Assembly (NCBI GenBank): GCA_902775355.1
Contig: CACYLY010000011.1
Location: forward strand, 1 to 39,419
Direction of reading: 5' to 3'
Origin: Oscillospiraceae bacterium
GTDB lineage: Bacteria > Bacillota > Clostridia > Oscillospirales > Oscillospiraceae
Length of the DNA stretch: 39,419 nucleotides
The notes under the pieces were generated by a model that made no database searches, had not been told where the DNA came from, and saw only the letters and a program-made list of their open reading frames with translations. The stretch's first letter is position 1. Each line of letters starts with the position of its first letter. This document shows, in pieces, positions 15,688 to 21,473 of this stretch. A program made the position numbers and the translations under genes.

Positions 15688-15763
15688 GCGGGCATAGCTC
15701 ATCCGGTAGAGCGCCACCTTGCCAAGGTGGAGGTAGCGAGTTCGAGCCTCGTTGCCCGCTCCA
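15688..15763 (+). tRNA. tRNA-Gly (anticodon GCC)
   Basis: A full cloverleaf of 76 bases: acceptor GCGGGCA/TGCCCGC, D arm GCTC...GAGC, anticodon stem CCACC/GGTGG with loop TTGCCAA (GCC at 15721-15723), T arm GCGAG-TTCGAGC-CTCGT and an encoded CCA end. Confidence 0.97.
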
Positions 15764-15801
15764 ACAAAACCTGTTGCTTATGCAATGGGTTTTTTTCATA
15801 C

Positions 15802-15884
15802 GCGGGTATGGTGGAATTGGCAGACACGCTGGATTTAGGTTCCAGTGGGCAACCGTGCAGGTTCAAATCCTGTTACCCGCACCA
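15802..15884 (+). tRNA. tRNA-Leu (anticodon TAG)
   Basis: 83 bases: acceptor GCGGGTA/TACCCGC, anticodon stem CTGGA/TCCAG with loop TTTAGGT (TAG), a long variable arm TGGGCAACCGTGC typical of Leu, T loop GTTCAAATC and encoded CCA. It is 38 bp behind tRNA-Gly and shares its promoter. Confidence 0.96.
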
Positions 15885-15920
15885 AAAAGGCGAGAATCCG
15901 AAAAGGATTCTCGCCTTTTT
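15884..15920 (+). terminator. Terminator of the tRNA operon
   Basis: A perfect 16-bp stem (15884-15899 with 15905-15920, core GGCGAGAATCC) starts at the last base of tRNA-Leu and ends in five T. Confidence 0.92.
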
Positions 15921-16165
15921 GGTGCCGCGCCTGCGGCGCTGGCAGATCCGCTTCGCTCAATTTTGGCGAGAGGGTCATACCCTCCCCTCTCGCGCTCACC
16001 CCATGCGGACTTGCGACTTGGTTCGGATTTGGATTTCTCCGGCGCGCAAGAAAAGGGGGAAATCCGAACAGGGTTTCCCCTTTTCTGGTGGCCGCGCCTG
16101 CGGCACGGGCAGATCCGCTTCGCTCAATTTGAGTGAGGGGGTCATACGCTTCCCGCTCGCGGCGC
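15921..16165. repeat. Duplicated hairpin-repeat unit between tRNA-Leu and the TIR gene
   Basis: Two imperfect direct copies lie at 15921-15995 and 16087-16165. Both run GGTG, CCGCGCCTGCGGC, CAGATCCGCTTCGCTCAA, then a palindromic GAG-x-GGGTCATAC-pyrimidine block. Each is preceded by a terminator-like hairpin: the tRNA terminator at 15884-15920, and 16050-16085 (GAAAAGGGG/CCCCTTTTC). The GGCGAGAGGG...CCCTCCCCT part matches 312-338, so this belongs to the family of the composite arrays. Copy 2 ends 4 bases from the TIR gene stop. No gene is seen in the 280 bp. Confidence 0.8.
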
Positions 16166-16168
16166 TAT

Positions 16169-19100
16169 TTATTTAAAATCCCTTCCCAAGCAGCGGATGT
16201 ACTCGATTTCGTTGCGGTACTTGACCGTCCAAGACACGCCGTCCTGCCGGCCATGTTTGACACAGGGCAGGTAAGAGACGTAGCCCGGATAGCTCTCGTT
16301 TATGTAATCCGGATCCTCGTCCAGGTCCGTGATAGGAGGCTGTATCCTCTCTCCTTCCACTTTTCGGATCGGAAAAGACCAGCAGGCCATCGGCTTGACA
16401 TGCCAGGGGTGCATCTGCAGGTCCGTAGCTGCCCGCTGCAGACCGCATTGCCCCGACGGCAGTTCAAAGACGCACTTGGTTTTGGTAAAGTGCGCGGGGA
16501 AGGATGCGTCATAATCATGTGCTTCGGTCTTTTCTGTCTTACGGCGGCTTCGCATGCCTGGCCAGTCTCCGTCTACAATAAACGGCCGCTTGAGCCATTC
16601 GAAGTGTTCCGGGTGGGCCTCTACGAATTCGGTGATACGCCGTTCCTCCTCCGGCGTCAGATAAACGCCGTCGTAGCAGCACACGGACTGACAGGAACCG
16701 CAGAAGCAGTTTGCCAGAACGGGTTCTTTCGGCAGGCCTTCCACCAGGTCGCGATCGAAGCGCTCCCGGTAGGCAGTAATACCGGAAACATAGGTCTTAC
16801 ACCAGTCTTCGGCCTGCTTCAGATGCTCGGGATCCATATCTTTGCAGAACCGTTTTACCGTTTGCATGATAACGACTGGCTCTCCCTTCACGCCCTCGCA
16901 TCGCTCCAGGAGGGCACACATGATATCGGTATCAAAGCTTTCGATCTCCCCAAGGACGCGGCAGCAGTATGCCTGCAGCATGTGTCCCGGGAACCCGGCT
17001 TCACGCACACGTGCATAGATCGTCTCATCCCGGAGTCGGTCGGCGTCGTGCAGCAGCCAGGCGCCCAATATCTGGAAGCAATCCGCCAGGGAGGCCAGAT
17101 ACCGGTAAGCTCCCTTCCTGGCGCGCAAACTCAGGTTTTCCAGTGCTGTCAGGCTTGCCCGGTCCCCGAAGCGGGCCACGGCCAGTTCCCTCCAGACGGA
17201 GCCGTACAGGTAGTCCCAGTCATGGATTTGCGAGGCGATCTTCAATCCCTCTTCATAGTACTTCAGGGATTCCATGATTCTGCCCTCAGTTTGCAGCAGA
17301 TTGGCATAACAGAGCTTGGCGATATCGTCGGCATGGATGTAGTATCGGTTCTCCATCAGACGGAACATCTCCGACGAAATCTTGTCAGCCTGCTCCAGTC
17401 TGCCCAGGGCCATATACCCATCAAAAAGATTGACCATCGACACGATGAGATCGTAATACTTTTTCTCTTTGCGGTACTGTTTGACATCGTTGTCCGCCGC
17501 CTTGACGACCTCCCGATTGTTGTCCAGGTCATGTGCCGTCAAAGCAACCACATGCCAATAATTCGCTTCGTTCACGCCCACCTTCCAGAAGTCCTTCCCG
17601 TGTTTTTTTCGCTCGGCTGTGATCAGACCGAATGATTCTCCCGCCTGTCCTGCGTAAAAATACGAATACGCCGCCTGACAGGTCAAGTCAAAAGCCTCCT
17701 TTTCGGTGACATCATTTTTTTCCAGGAAACCCAGAGCCTCTGCCGCGGCAGGGGCGAGTTCGCTGCCGGAGGTCTTTTTGTAATAGTCAAGAAGATGCAT
17801 ATAGTATCCGCAGTCTTTGCCGATCTCGTCCTCGAAGCGTATGAGGAAGCTTTTTTCAAGATCCAGCCTGCCGTATAGGCGGGCGCCCTCCAGGAGTTTG
17901 TCAAGAAGCCTGCGCTTGGTCTCGGCAGGCATTTCATCCCAGGCGTCCGGATCGAAATGGGACGGACCGTACAGCACCGCGTATTCTGACAGGGGCGGTT
18001 CTTCCCTGGCGCAGCGAACCAGATTTGCCGCGAAGCGGCGGTCGCCGTTAGCAGAAAAGACCCGGTACGCGCCAGCCCCTTCGGAGGTCATCCATTCCAG
18101 AAAGGATTTGTGGAACACCTGCAGCACGGTCTGGCTGCCCTCCTGCATCTCATAGACATAGGATCGGACCTTTCGCAGCTGCATCTTCAGCGCTTCCGGC
18201 TCCAGGCCCAGAACGGAGCAGACCTCCGCCTCGGTAAGTTGTCTCCTTGCCACCAGAAGCAGTTCGAACAAGGGTTTATAACGGTCGGAATAGTCACCAA
18301 CTGTGGGAAACACTCGCCGAAAATTGGTGTAGTACGCGCCGCCAAGTCCGGAGGGCAGCCGATCCGGGTCAAAGCGGGTCTGCGACAGGAGCTTGATCAT
18401 CTCACGGGCGCAGATGAAGGAGCCATCGCTGCGGGCAATGATCTTTTCTGCCACTGATTCATCGTCGACTCTAAGCCTGACGTACTCGCGTATATCGGCT
18501 TCGATCTCGCAGCGGTGGTCGTCTATGCGGATGGAGCGGTACTGCTGCAGTGCCTCGGAGATCACGGCTTCTGGCCGCGAAGTGAAAAACACCCGGATCC
18601 AGCCCGGCAGTCCCTCCGTGATGCGGAGCATGACGTCAAGCAAGTGCGTCTGATTGGTAACGGCCTCGTCGAGGGCGTCAAAGATGATGATCTTCCTCTC
18701 ACGACCGCCGTCGATGAGCAAATTCAGAGGCTCGAGCAGCAGGCGGTCGATGAGATCGTCCTCCGACAGCAGCGCTGGGTCGTACTTGCCAAGCAGCTCC
18801 ACCAGGAGCATCTGATAGTCCTCCAGCGCGCAGGCAAGCTGAAAAGCCACGCTGCAAATGAGCTTGCGTGCGTCCCGGGTGGAGGAGTTGTTCCACTCGA
18901 AATAATGAGCCGCTATACAGGAGGTGGAGAAACCGCACAAATAGGCAGACAGAACGCTCTTGCCCGTGCCGGGAGAGCCGTAAACTACCGTGGCCCGGCT
19001 TGCCGACGGGGACATGGCAAGGTCCACCAACCATTTACGGGGGATGATCTCGTCCTGCAGCAGCAAGCGCATTTTCAGTGAATTCGTGATGGGAGACAGC

Positions 19101-19690
19101 TGCCTCTGCAGCCGTTCGATGTTTCCGGAGAGCACATCGCCGCGCTCATCCTCCACCAGGGCGCAGATCAAAGCGAACTTCTCCGCAAACCATTTTTCCC
19201 AGGCCGCCGGATCGGGATCGGCGCGCTTTTCCCGCCAGTCCGACAGATCCAGCCACTGGTGGTTGCTGATGCTGTTGGGTGCCTCGACTCCCTTTTCCAG
19301 CAGGATCGCGTGGATGCGGCAATTGTAGTTTCCCACTCCGATCGAGATCTCATCCAGACACACACCGGGATTTCGAACGGAATAATTGGAAACAAACGCC
19401 AAAAAGCCACTGCTGTCCAAGATCCCGCGGGTTATGGCATCACGCCAGTCATTGCCCGTTTTGATCTCGGCGTAGTCGATCCACGGCAGATGACCCCGCT
19501 CCCTCAGTTTTTCACAGATTAGCTTGACCAGCCATGCGTTTTCGTCGTGGCCGTAACTCAAGAAAACCTTTTTGGGAACAAATTTCTTTTCCTGGGGCAG
19601 GAACGTCTTCTCGCAGTCCTCACAGACATAAACACATTTCTTTTTGCTGTAATAAACGTTTTGGGATCCGCAGTGTACACAGCTGATCAT
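16169..19690 (-). CDS. Zinc ribbon-TIR-STAND NTPase-TPR protein with YkgJ/DUF3109-like C-terminus (putative NLR-like defence protein)
   Basis: 1173 residues. 1-30: zinc ribbon (C4, C7, C23, C26). About 40-175: TIR domain, starting VFLSYGHDE; E114 in PGVCLDEIS sits where NAD-cleaving TIRs keep their catalytic Glu. About 210-480: STAND/NACHT-like NTPase, Walker A GSPGTGKS (238-245), Walker B IIIFDALDEA (334-343), FFTSRPEA sensor, then a winged-helix-like part. About 640-960: TPR-type helices. 995-1173: cysteine cluster (C995, C997, C1000, C1004, C1005, then KCVF, GQC, KPMACWSFPIR and LPC) like YkgJ/DUF3109 metal-chelating domains. TIR-STAND-TPR proteins are known antiphage sensors that deplete NAD; that role here is inference. 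Nothing comparable to the last domain is known to me in this setting. It has its own promoter and AAAAGGAGA site, no operon partner, and locally lower GC; it stands by a tRNA pair, suggesting acquisition. Confidence 0.88.
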   Translation of the reverse strand: MISCVHCGSQNVYYSKKKCVYVCEDCEKTFLPQEKKFVPKKVFLSYGHDENAWLVKLICEKLRERGHLPWIDYAEIKTGNDWRDAITRGILDSSGFLAFVSNYSVRNPGVCLDEISIGVGNYNCRIHAILLEKGVEAPNSISNHQWLDLSDWREKRADPDPAAWEKWFAEKFALICALVEDERGDVLSGNIERLQRQLSPITNSLKMRLLLQDEIIPRKWLVDLAMSPSASRATVVYGSPGTGKSVLSAYLCGFSTSCIAAHYFEWNNSSTRDARKLICSVAFQLACALEDYQMLLVELLGKYDPALLSEDDLIDRLLLEPLNLLIDGGRERKIIIFDALDEAVTNQTHLLDVMLRITEGLPGWIRVFFTSRPEAVISEALQQYRSIRIDDHRCEIEADIREYVRLRVDDESVAEKIIARSDGSFICAREMIKLLSQTRFDPDRLPSGLGGAYYTNFRRVFPTVGDYSDRYKPLFELLLVARRQLTEAEVCSVLGLEPEALKMQLRKVRSYVYEMQEGSQTVLQVFHKSFLEWMTSEGAGAYRVFSANGDRRFAANLVRCAREEPPLSEYAVLYGPSHFDPDAWDEMPAETKRRLLDKLLEGARLYGRLDLEKSFLIRFEDEIGKDCGYYMHLLDYYKKTSGSELAPAAAEALGFLEKNDVTEKEAFDLTCQAAYSYFYAGQAGESFGLITAERKKHGKDFWKVGVNEANYWHVVALTAHDLDNNREVVKAADNDVKQYRKEKKYYDLIVSMVNLFDGYMALGRLEQADKISSEMFRLMENRYYIHADDIAKLCYANLLQTEGRIMESLKYYEEGLKIASQIHDWDYLYGSVWRELAVARFGDRASLTALENLSLRARKGAYRYLASLADCFQILGAWLLHDADRLRDETIYARVREAGFPGHMLQAYCCRVLGEIESFDTDIMCALLERCEGVKGEPVVIMQTVKRFCKDMDPEHLKQAEDWCKTYVSGITAYRERFDRDLVEGLPKEPVLANCFCGSCQSVCCYDGVYLTPEEERRITEFVEAHPEHFEWLKRPFIVDGDWPGMRSRRKTEKTEAHDYDASFPAHFTKTKCVFELPSGQCGLQRAATDLQMHPWHVKPMACWSFPIRKVEGERIQPPITDLDEDPDYINESYPGYVSYLPCVKHGRQDGVSWTVKYRNEIEYIRCLGRDFK

Positions 19691-19731
19691 GGTCCCGTCT
19701 CCTTTTCGGCAGCGATTGATTTATATGAAGA

Positions 19732-19760
19732 ATTATAACGGAAAATGCCGGAATTGACAA
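19732..19760 (-). promoter_or_regulatory. Strong sigma-A-type promoter of the TIR-STAND gene
   Basis: On the minus strand TTGTCA (19760-19755), 17 bases and a perfect TATAAT (19737-19732). Transcription would start near 19725, giving a leader of about 35 bases before the ATG at 19690. Confidence 0.85.
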
Positions 19761-20453
19761 TCGCTTTTCTTTCTTGCCGCTTCATGCGGGCAGGACGCTT
19801 TCTTTCCATTCCCGGCTTCATCGCTTTCTCTCCCGCGATCCCGAGCTTCTCACGGCGGAGAGCAGCGAATACGGACATGAAGCAAAAGCAGGGCCGGATC
19901 CTTTGAAAGATGCCCAAAACGGTATGAACTGCGTTTCCTCAGACGGAAATGTCTGCTCTCGCTTATTTTATCTCAATCCCACTCTTTCAAGCTTGCTCGT
20001 CTTTGCGCAAAGCTCTGCCGGTCTGATTTCTTAGCCTTGTTGTTTTCGCCCTTTTATTTATAATACAGTCAAAGTCCCTACGATCGAAATCGGCTTTCGC
20101 ATATCCGGCAGCAGATCGGAATTCCGTCGTGACCTTCCCAAACCAGAAGCAGGCCAAAAGGAAAAGGCGGCTATCATTGCAGTTATTTCCATCTCCACCG
20201 TTTTTTGGCGGCGCATTGCATTGTGCTTTTTCGTTTCCTCCTTCCGAGATTTCCTATTACGCCTTCCGTTTTGACCGTCCCGTGTCCTTCAACGGCTTTG
20301 GAACGCCGCGTGTCCACCCGGACAGCTCTATGTTTATGACCCACCAGGTTTTGACCGACGTGCTGATCGCGGATTACGATTATGTTTATCTCCCCTGAGC
20401 CTGTCCGAAGGTTTCCCACGCAATCAAAACTTGACAGGTTTTGACAAAAAGTA
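19761..20453. other. Gene-poor, AT-richer spacer
   Basis: About 690 bases without a reading frame that has both a ribosome site and a recognisable protein. A plus-strand promoter-like pair TTGTTT/TATAAT with a 17-base spacer lies at 20036-20064, without a clear gene behind it. An 89-codon GTG-started frame (20129-20398) ends in FDRPVSFNGFGT...DYDYVYLP, which could be a gene remnant but lacks a ribosome site. Two TTGACA boxes 10 bases apart (20431, 20441) lie at the right end. Confidence 0.5.
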
Positions 20454-20482
20454 TTGATTGTTTGCGCATTTCCTTTTATAGT
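20454..20482 (+). promoter_or_regulatory. Probable promoter of the zinc-ribbon membrane protein gene
   Basis: TTGATT (20454-20459), 17 bases and TATAGT (20477-20482). A second TATAGT overlaps at 20482-20487. The start codon is 30 bases downstream behind GGAGG. Confidence 0.65.
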
Positions 20483-20512
20483 ATAGTTATAAAATCTTTT
20501 TGGAGGTGTACC

Positions 20513-21367
20513 ATGCCCATCTGTTCAAATTGCGGAAACAATGTTCCCGACGGCTCCAGATTCTGCACCGTGTGCGGAGCGCCCATCGCAGCAGCCCCCC
20601 GGTCTTCCGTTGACCCGAACGCGCAGGATATGGGTCCTGCCCCGCAGGCTCCTCAGCCCGAGTACTGGCAGTCCGCCCCGAACTATGCCCCCTCGTATTC
20701 TTACAGTCGTCCCGCGGTCGGCAGCGTGTTTGACATCTATGGCAAAGCCTTTGGATGCCTGGCAAAAAAGCCCATCCGTCTCTGGGGCCTCTCCCTGCTG
20801 TATATGGTGATCGTCAGTATGGTAAGCTCTCTCGGCGCCTTTGTTCCGATCATCACCTTGCCGATCACCCTGATCCTCAGTCTGGGCTTTACCGGCGTCC
20901 TGCAGGACGGTTATCACGGACTTGACGTTCGCAGCGAGCAGCTTTTCCAGGGCTTCAAGAAGGATGAAGTGGTCCGCAACGGCGCCGGCATGTGCTGGCA
21001 GAGTCTGTGGAACATGATCTGGTCCTTGGTCCCGATCATGAACATCATCAAGTACTACTCCTACTGCTTTGTTCCCTACATCCTGCTGACCGATAAAGAG
21101 ATCACCGCCACCGAGGCCCTTCGCAAGTCCATGCGCATGACGAAAGGTTACAAGGGAAAGATGTTCCTGGCAGATTTCTTGATCATCATCGGATTCTTCC
21201 TTGTCCTCCTCGTGCTGGGTCTTCTTACCAGGATCCCCTATCTCGGCATTCTCTTCGGGATCATCCTTGTGCTCCTGTATATTGCGGCCATACTCTTCCT
21301 GCCCATTTTCTGCGGCCTTGTCCGTACGGCTTTCTTCAACGAAGTCAACGCGATCTACACGGAGTGA
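20513..21367 (+). CDS. Zinc-ribbon polytopic membrane protein (DUF975-like)
   Basis: The ATG at 20513 is preceded by TTGGAGG; the longer frame upstream covers the promoter. Of 284 residues, 1-25 are a zinc ribbon (PICSNCG, C4/C7, and RFCTVCGAPI, C18/C21), followed by a Pro/Ala/Tyr-rich linker (26-75) and five or six membrane helices (about 100-275). The helical part contains 'ILSLGFTGVLQDG', 'YYSYCFVPYILLTDKEITATEALRKSMRMTKGYKGKMF', the pattern of DUF975 and related membrane proteins of Firmicutes. The function of the family is unknown. It is divergent from the TIR gene with an 820-bp gap, so a functional link is only positional. A strong terminator follows. Confidence 0.78.
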   Translation: MPICSNCGNNVPDGSRFCTVCGAPIAAAPRSSVDPNAQDMGPAPQAPQPEYWQSAPNYAPSYSYSRPAVGSVFDIYGKAFGCLAKKPIRLWGLSLLYMVIVSMVSSLGAFVPIITLPITLILSLGFTGVLQDGYHGLDVRSEQLFQGFKKDEVVRNGAGMCWQSLWNMIWSLVPIMNIIKYYSYCFVPYILLTDKEITATEALRKSMRMTKGYKGKMFLADFLIIIGFFLVLLVLGLLTRIPYLGILFGIILVLLYIAAILFLPIFCGLVRTAFFNEVNAIYTE

Positions 21368-21413
21368 TCCCGGCGATCCGACCCGAACAGACCGTAAATA
21401 AGCTTTTCCTTTT

Positions 21414-21439
21414 ACGATACCCCCCTCGGGGGGTATCGT
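21414..21439 (+). terminator. Intrinsic terminator
   Basis: ACGATACCCCCC/GGGGGGTATCGT (21414-21425 with 21428-21439) followed by TTTTTC. It ends the zinc-ribbon membrane protein transcript. Confidence 0.9.
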
Positions 21440-21473
21440 TTTTCTTCTCCCGTCACACTTCTAAAGTGCAAAA

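What the first reader, a model, noticed from the sequence alone, without database searches (positions are those of the whole stretch)
16169..19690. Single-gene zinc ribbon-TIR-STAND-TPR-YkgJ protein: candidate NLR-like antiphage sensor with an added cysteine-cluster domain
Seen: a CxxC/CxxC ribbon, a TIR domain with an acidic residue (E114) at the NADase position, intact Walker A and B, TPR-like helices, and a 179-residue C-terminal cysteine cluster like YkgJ/DUF3109. Known: TIR-STAND proteins can sense phage and destroy NAD. Inferred: the TPRs sense a ligand and the TIR is the effector. The metal-binding C-terminus is the unexplained part; it could bind iron or zinc, sense redox state or the invader, or be a second effector. 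I know of no described defence system with this order.
Basis: partly seen in the sequence, partly recalled or inferred. Interest (0 to 1): 0.88.

Follow-up and report, generated by a model that had tools for sequence, protein, structure and literature searches.

The report
TIR immune receptor with cysteine-cluster tail
A bacterium carries, in a small DNA segment that its nearest relative lacks, one large protein built like a plant or animal immune receptor whose sensing end includes a probable metal-binding domain that many other bacteria make as a separate small protein.

Summary
The gene is real: one uninterrupted 1173-codon ORF on the MINUS strand of 16169-19690. TIR (42-154) and STAND-type NTPase (226-372) pass Pfam cut-offs, E about 1e-18. 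The zinc ribbon and TPR helices are weaker but have support. The tail (995-1173) is DUF3109-like, with eight conserved cysteines and the CX4CX3CC spacing that binds [4Fe-4S] in FliB.

The protein is modular. Residues 1-480 are 35% identical to a protein of another genus of the family that ends in a RyR domain instead. Residues 672-1030, TPR plus start of the tail, are 30% identical (E 1e-50) to a Paenibacillus AAA-TPR-tail protein near a type I restriction gene. In 8 of 9 loci from a species-wide pattern scan the tail stands alone. The gene lies in a 5.3-kb segment missing from the closest relative. The full order was found only here, in the searches made.

Best reading: a single-protein NLR-like receptor with TIR effector, STAND switch and TPR-[Fe-S] sensor or bait. 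Antiphage function, NAD loss and metal are inferred. New variant of a known kind.

The parts
16169..19690 (-). The gene: 1173-aa zinc ribbon-TIR-STAND-TPR-DUF3109-like protein
19601..19690 (-). Zinc-ribbon-like N-terminus, residues 1-30 (C4, C7, C23, C26)
   Evidence: cysteines kept in G294; E 0.13 only; pLDDT 73-86
19229..19567 (-). TIR domain, residues 42-154; E114 at the likely TIR glutamate position
18575..19015 (-). STAND NTPase (NPHP3_N), residues 226-372; Walker A 238-245, Walker B 334-342
16601..17677 (-). TPR plus start of the tail, homologous to Paenibacillus ihuae L038, residues 672-1030 (30%, E 1e-50)
16172..16708 (-). DUF3109-like cysteine-cluster domain, residues 995-1173
16676..16708 (-). 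CX4CX3CC motif (C995, C1000, C1004, C1005)
   Evidence: motif in FliB: PMC8598068 passages
19732..19760 (-). Promoter-like site TTGTCA-17-TATAAT, 11 of 12
16161..21470 (.). Accessory segment absent from the closest same-genus relative (G1518/L058), which has about 100 unaligned bases in its place
20441..21367 (+). Second gene of the segment: zinc ribbon + DUF975-like (DUF975 just under its cut-off) protein, divergent; any link to the TIR gene untested
15688..15884 (+). tRNA-Gly and tRNA-Leu at the low edge of the segment
15878..16161 (.). Two 117-nt repeats (75% alike) at the low edge of the segment

Best explanation
A single-protein, NLR-like receptor. At rest the STAND NTPase holds the protein closed. 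A trigger acting on the C-terminal half (TPR superhelix plus a cysteine-cluster domain that probably holds a [4Fe-4S] cluster) lets the NTPase bind NTP and assemble; the N-terminal TIR domains are brought together and consume NAD, halting the cell before an invader spreads. The C-terminal half is a transferable sensing module; its cysteine domain, which other bacteria make as a free protein, is the part that is watched or that binds the trigger. Shown: domain order, intact motifs, relatives of each half with different partners, presence/absence at the locus. Inferred: assembly, NADase activity, metal, the trigger, defence.
For: TIR and NTPase over Pfam cut-offs; E114 at the likely TIR Glu position. 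The N-terminal 480 residues recur in a protein with a RyR domain at the far end (35%; RyR E 9.7e-28); phage RyR-domain proteins bind or cleave the TIR products 2'- and 3'-cADPR (PMC13232231, preprint, passages), so that end can carry ligand-handling domains. TPR plus start of the tail recur on another AAA NTPase, one ORF away from an HsdR gene. Accessory: 5.3 kb missing in G1518; GC3 0.696 against 0.706-0.890 in 21 neighbouring ORFs. Rare: matches to P0001 in 4 of 400 family genomes including its own (0 of the 9 other same-genus genomes listed there), 3 of 391 class genomes including its own. The RyR relative lies with PP2C, a kinase with a Card1-like endonuclease end, ClpP and a conjugation ATPase. 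N-terminal effector, STAND, variable C-terminal sensor is the described plan of bacterial antiviral STAND proteins (PMC10907252, passages).
Against: No NAD, metal or phage data. No library model of a defence system covers the protein. Neighbours in the window are housekeeping or unknown genes. Two of five printed alignments do not put a Glu opposite E114 and one does not reach it. The Paenibacillus relative has no recognised effector, which suits the tail being an effector rather than a sensor; its gene is also split into two frames and has an assembly gap. The free-domain relatives stand among genes that do not look like defence genes (7 loci by eye). Relatives at 28% identity in G763 and G799 sit at one conserved housekeeping place. 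AlphaFold gave low confidence for TIR and NTPase; the alignment held no relatives there.
Confidence: 0.5

Rival explanations
1. The cysteine domain is a second effector or an enzyme, for example an Fe-S dependent protein methyltransferase like FliB, switched on by the STAND core; the TIR is a first effector or a signalling adaptor.
For: Same CX4CX3CC spacing and, like FliB, eight conserved cysteines; in FliB the [4Fe-4S] is needed for methyl transfer (passages of PMC8598068). The Paenibacillus protein has AAA, TPR and this domain but no other recognised effector. Invariant W, K-P and D-G residues besides the cysteines.
Against: No match to a methyltransferase family in Pfam or NCBIfam; no solved structure with a similar fold found; the motif alone is short.
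Confidence: 0.2
2. A redox, oxygen or iron sensor: the cluster falls apart under oxidative or iron stress and the TIR then lowers NAD, a stress response rather than phage defence.
Against: Rare, present/absent distribution is unlike a general stress sensor; a relative of the front half carries RyR at its end instead.
Confidence: 0.13
3. A regulatory or scaffolding STAND protein without immune role, the TIR acting only as an interaction domain.
For: Housekeeping surroundings; G763/G799 relatives with conserved synteny.
Against: TIR Glu kept in the four aligned TIRs; accessory segment; defence-type genes near two relatives.
Confidence: 0.12
4. The order is a MAG or assembly artefact.
For: The genome is a 92-contig assembly, 87.5% complete, 3.21% contaminated; no second full-length copy found.
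Against: One open frame with even composition (GC3 0.676-0.740 in five segments); flanks match the same chromosomal place in G1518; TPR and tail are joined independently in Paenibacillus and the front half occurs in G294.
Confidence: 0.03

Closest known systems
G294 protein (L014 6830-10246), 1139 aa, another genus of the same family
   Same: Zinc ribbon-TIR-NPHP3-type STAND, 35% identity over the first 480 residues; then TPRs
   Different: Its TPRs do not match ours in BLAST (best E 0.010 over 19 residues) and it ends in a RyR domain, not the cysteine cluster
Paenibacillus ihuae AAA_16-TPR-DUF3109-like protein (L038)
   Same: TPR plus start of the tail, 30% over 372 alignment columns, E 1e-50; second half of the tail 46%
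   Different: Other NTPase type, no TIR found; gene split and gapped in the assembly
DUF3109 (PF11307) small proteins, e.g. on a Priestia megaterium plasmid, L028, 184 aa
   Same: 40% identity, same cysteines and loops
   Different: Free proteins (ORFs of 161-295 aa, some starts doubtful); neighbours not defence-like where looked at by eye
FliB, flagellin lysine methyltransferase (PMC8598068, passages seen)
   Same: CX4CX3CC motif, eight conserved cysteines
   Different: No alignment to FliB made here; methyltransferase activity not implied
Antiviral STAND / bNACHT proteins (PMC10907252 passages; PMC12169576 abstract)
   Same: N-terminal effector, STAND NTPase, C-terminal repeats or sensor
   Different: No PADLOC Avs model among the matches; NPHP3-type NTPase; cysteine domain at the end
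Cat1 and short-Ago TIR effectors
   Same: TIR domain
   Different: Those TIRs are driven by nucleotide or Argonaute partners, not by a STAND core in the same chain (recalled)

Membership tests
TIR domain, NADase type | Pfam TIR_2 over the curated cut-off | tested here: met
   67.4 bits against 28
TIR domain, NADase type | Glutamate at the catalytic position | tested here: inconclusive
   E114 opposite a Glu in 2 of 5 printed alignments, three columns past the Glu in 2, not reached in 1; kept in 4 of 4 aligned TIRs, its own included. Likely met; catalytic role recalled
TIR domain, NADase type | NAD cleavage | not testable with these tools
   needs an assay
STAND NTPase | P-loop domain with Walker A and B | tested here: met
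   NPHP3_N 67.9 bits against 24.8; motifs read
STAND NTPase | winged helix after the NTPase | tested here: inconclusive
   HTH_TANC1 463-568 E 0.013, 15.7 bits against 27
Bacterial NLR-like receptor (effector-STAND-repeats) | tripartite order in one chain | tested here: met
Bacterial NLR-like receptor (effector-STAND-repeats) | defence against phage | not testable with these tools
   needs phage challenge
Avs (antiviral STAND) families | match to a PADLOC Avs model | tested here: not met
   5 families at E <= 0.1, all matching only within residues 32-118, none named Avs
Defence island gene | other defence genes beside it in the window | tested here: not met
   10 neighbouring ORFs searched in Pfam: housekeeping or unknown; ORFs farther out not searched
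DUF3109 (PF11307) | score over the curated cut-off | tested here: not met
   24.9 bits against 33.5 for the domain; but 10 of 10 aligned sequences, its own included, match at E <= 0.01 and Priestia L028 passes (37.5)
YkgJ / CxxCxxCC (PF03692) | match to the model | tested here: not met
   no match for P0001 at E <= 1; relative L011 15.7 bits against 23
[4Fe-4S] cluster protein of the FliB type | CX4CX3CC motif | tested here: met
   C995, C1000, C1004, C1005; of 10 aligned sequences, its own included, 9 keep the first cysteine and 10 the other three
[4Fe-4S] cluster protein of the FliB type | bound cluster | not testable with these tools
   needs spectroscopy and metal analysis

The most novel reading that the evidence does not exclude
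A bacterial counterpart of the plant 'NLR with integrated decoy': a free Fe-S protein of the DUF3109 kind, which some invader disturbs, was fused to the TPR arm of STAND receptors as bait, in a module now found in this genome and in Paenibacillus, and the TIR effector fires when the bait is touched. The C-terminal end holds a RyR domain (a cADPR-binding kind) in a relative of the front half, so it is an exchangeable bait or ligand socket.
Probability: 0.2. Interest if true: 0.85.

Novelty: new variant of a known kind. Interest (0 to 1): 0.6.

Why it matters
If right, it shows bacterial NLR-like receptors built by swapping whole sensor modules, including one made from an otherwise free metal-cluster protein. 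That makes a long-standing question, whether bacterial receptors guard or bait cellular proteins as plant NLRs do, testable with a single gene. The relative with a RyR domain adds a case where a TIR and a probable reader or remover of its product share one chain.
Full report
WHAT IS THERE. The finding's span holds one gene, on the minus strand, 19690 down to 16169, 1173 codons. Pfam: TIR_2 at 42-154 (E 2.1e-18), NPHP3_N, a STAND-type NTPase, at 226-372 (E 1.5e-18), weak TPR matches, DUF3109 at 995-1113 (E 1.2e-3, under its cut-off). PADLOC matches lie within the TIR stretch only (5 families); NCBIfam has two rows far under their cut-offs, a retron-TIR model and an ATPase. A promoter-like site with 11 of 12 matches lies 42-70 bases upstream. 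Walker A and B are intact. E114 falls on a Glu in two of five printed HMM alignments to solved TIRs (Cat1 9mud, 8qlo), three columns past the Glu in two others, and is not reached in one; it is kept in all four TIRs I aligned, its own included.

THE LOCUS. Downstream of the gene are tRNA-Leu and tRNA-Gly and D-Ala-D-Ala ligase; upstream a zinc ribbon-DUF975-like gene, two MgtC genes and a Mur ligase. The ligase was found in 9 of 11 same-genus genomes, its own included, and the stretch on the gene's side was fetched for the eight others. Only one, G1518, keeps the local order (ligase, both tRNAs, two MgtC, HAD, Mur ligase, exonuclease at 86-94% protein identity); in the other seven only the ligase matched of the ten window proteins searched. 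In G1518 alignment runs to window 16160 and resumes at 21471, with about 100 bases between: the target gene and the zinc ribbon-DUF975-like gene are both absent. So the gene is part of a 5.3-kb accessory segment; one relative shows it, and gain or loss is not decided. I saw no integrase gene in the segment; a repeat (two copies in the window, six matching places in the genome including these) lies at one edge. GC3 of the gene is 0.696, below each of 21 neighbouring ORFs measured (0.706-0.890; the lowest is the other gene of the segment).

RELATIVES OF THE FRONT HALF. Of 400 genomes of the family, 4 matched at E 1e-5 or better, one being its own: G294 (E 1e-74), G303 (the tail alone, plus a separate TIR), G261 (TIR only). 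The G294 protein is zinc ribbon-TIR-NPHP3-TPR and ends in a RyR domain (E 9.7e-28); over the first 480 residues it is 35% identical, while the TPR halves do not match in BLAST. It lies after Spo0A and before an unknown gene, PP2C, a 1395-aa kinase with a Card1-like endonuclease end (E 6.8e-6, just under the cut-off), ClpP and a conjugation ATPase. A front-half profile found 1 of 394 order genomes (its own) at E 1e-20 (whether G294 was in that draw is not told). Of 391 class genomes 3 matched, its own and G763 and G799, 28% identical over about 38-557, 949-950 aa, with no ribbon or tail seen, both between what by eye are a ZIP transporter and an inositol monophosphatase. These two speak for vertical inheritance of some distant relatives.

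RELATIVES OF THE BACK HALF. A tail profile found 2 of 400 family genomes, its own and G303. Another free copy is on a Priestia megaterium plasmid. In Paenibacillus an 885-aa ORF holds the end of an AAA_16 NTPase (its start is in a separate 156-aa ORF), TPRs and the tail, interrupted by an assembly gap. TPR plus the start of the tail match residues 672-1030 with 30% identity, E 1e-50. A type I restriction R subunit (E 1.7e-78 and 2.6e-75 for two domains) lies on one side with one 184-aa ORF between, SbcD on the other. The fusion was in 1 of 384 genomes of that family, its own. The two relatives thus cover the two halves of our protein; the join lies somewhere between about residues 540 and 670.

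THE TAIL. Ten sequences, its own included, align with 22 invariant positions. Eight cysteines are conserved: 995 (9 of 10; L037 instead has one at the place of C997), 1000, 1004, 1005, 1073, 1082, 1103, 1143. C995-X4-C1000-X3-C1004-C1005 is the spacing that binds [4Fe-4S] in FliB, where changing the four cysteines to alanine abolished cluster and activity; FliB is also said to have eight conserved cysteines (PMC8598068, passages). The metal here is inferred. AlphaFold with nine sequences gave pTM 0.68, mean pLDDT 68 and no convincing match to a solved structure.

MECHANISM. I think most likely (0.5) that this is a one-protein NLR-like receptor: TIR as NAD-consuming effector, STAND NTPase as switch, TPR plus Fe-S domain as the sensing end. 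The RyR relative is informative: phage RyR proteins bind or cleave cADPR isomers (PMC13232231, preprint, passages), so the C-terminal end can hold ligand-handling domains. Bacterial NLR-like proteins can also sense through a host protein: bNACHT25 needs DnaJ (PMC12169576, abstract). A domain that exists free elsewhere and is fused to a receptor arm is what an integrated bait would look like; that is my boldest reading (0.2). The strongest point against a sensor role is the Paenibacillus protein, in which no other effector was recognised, so the tail could be an effector (0.2).

NOVELTY. STAND proteins with N-terminal TIR effectors are a known kind (PMC10907252, passages). The DUF3109-like tail, its company with the TPR arm on two NTPases, and a RyR end in a relative of the front half are, as far as ten searches of an open-access library show in their listings, undescribed. 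The complete order was found once only, in this genome. Hence 'new variant of a known kind', interest 0.6: well supported as anatomy, unproven as function. On checking, the E114 position was marked down from met to inconclusive; the odds did not need to change.

Noticed in passing
L014 6830-10246 and L066 (genome G294): TIR-STAND-TPR-RyR protein in one chain, followed by an unknown gene, PP2C, a kinase with a Card1-like endonuclease end, ClpP and a conjugation ATPase: a possible defence cluster in which a TIR and a probable reader of its product are fused.
   Followed up: partly
own genome, L017 (G000:C35:29000-37184): Two TIR genes (one TIR-Sel1, one with TIR at its C-terminus) with an ADP-ribosylglycohydrolase and a nucleoside phosphorylase frame within about 8 kb.
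   Followed up: no
own genome, L016 2841-5111 (G000:C38): A TIR protein with leucine-rich repeats (TIR_2 8.7e-20, LRR_4 7.6e-23), 757-aa frame. The genome has 8 TIR_2 regions over the cut-off, the target's included.
   Followed up: no
window 15878-16161: A repeat of about 120 nt after tRNA-Leu, two copies here, six matching places in the genome including these, one elsewhere 90% identical; related repeats stand at the same place in L058.
   Followed up: partly
window 20441-21367: Zinc ribbon-DUF975-like gene, absent together with the TIR gene from G1518, divergently placed.
   Followed up: partly
L022: Phage contig with a protein whose GGGYWSDG...GSRC stretch resembles, by eye, variable-repeat tail proteins; not related to the finding.
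   Followed up: no
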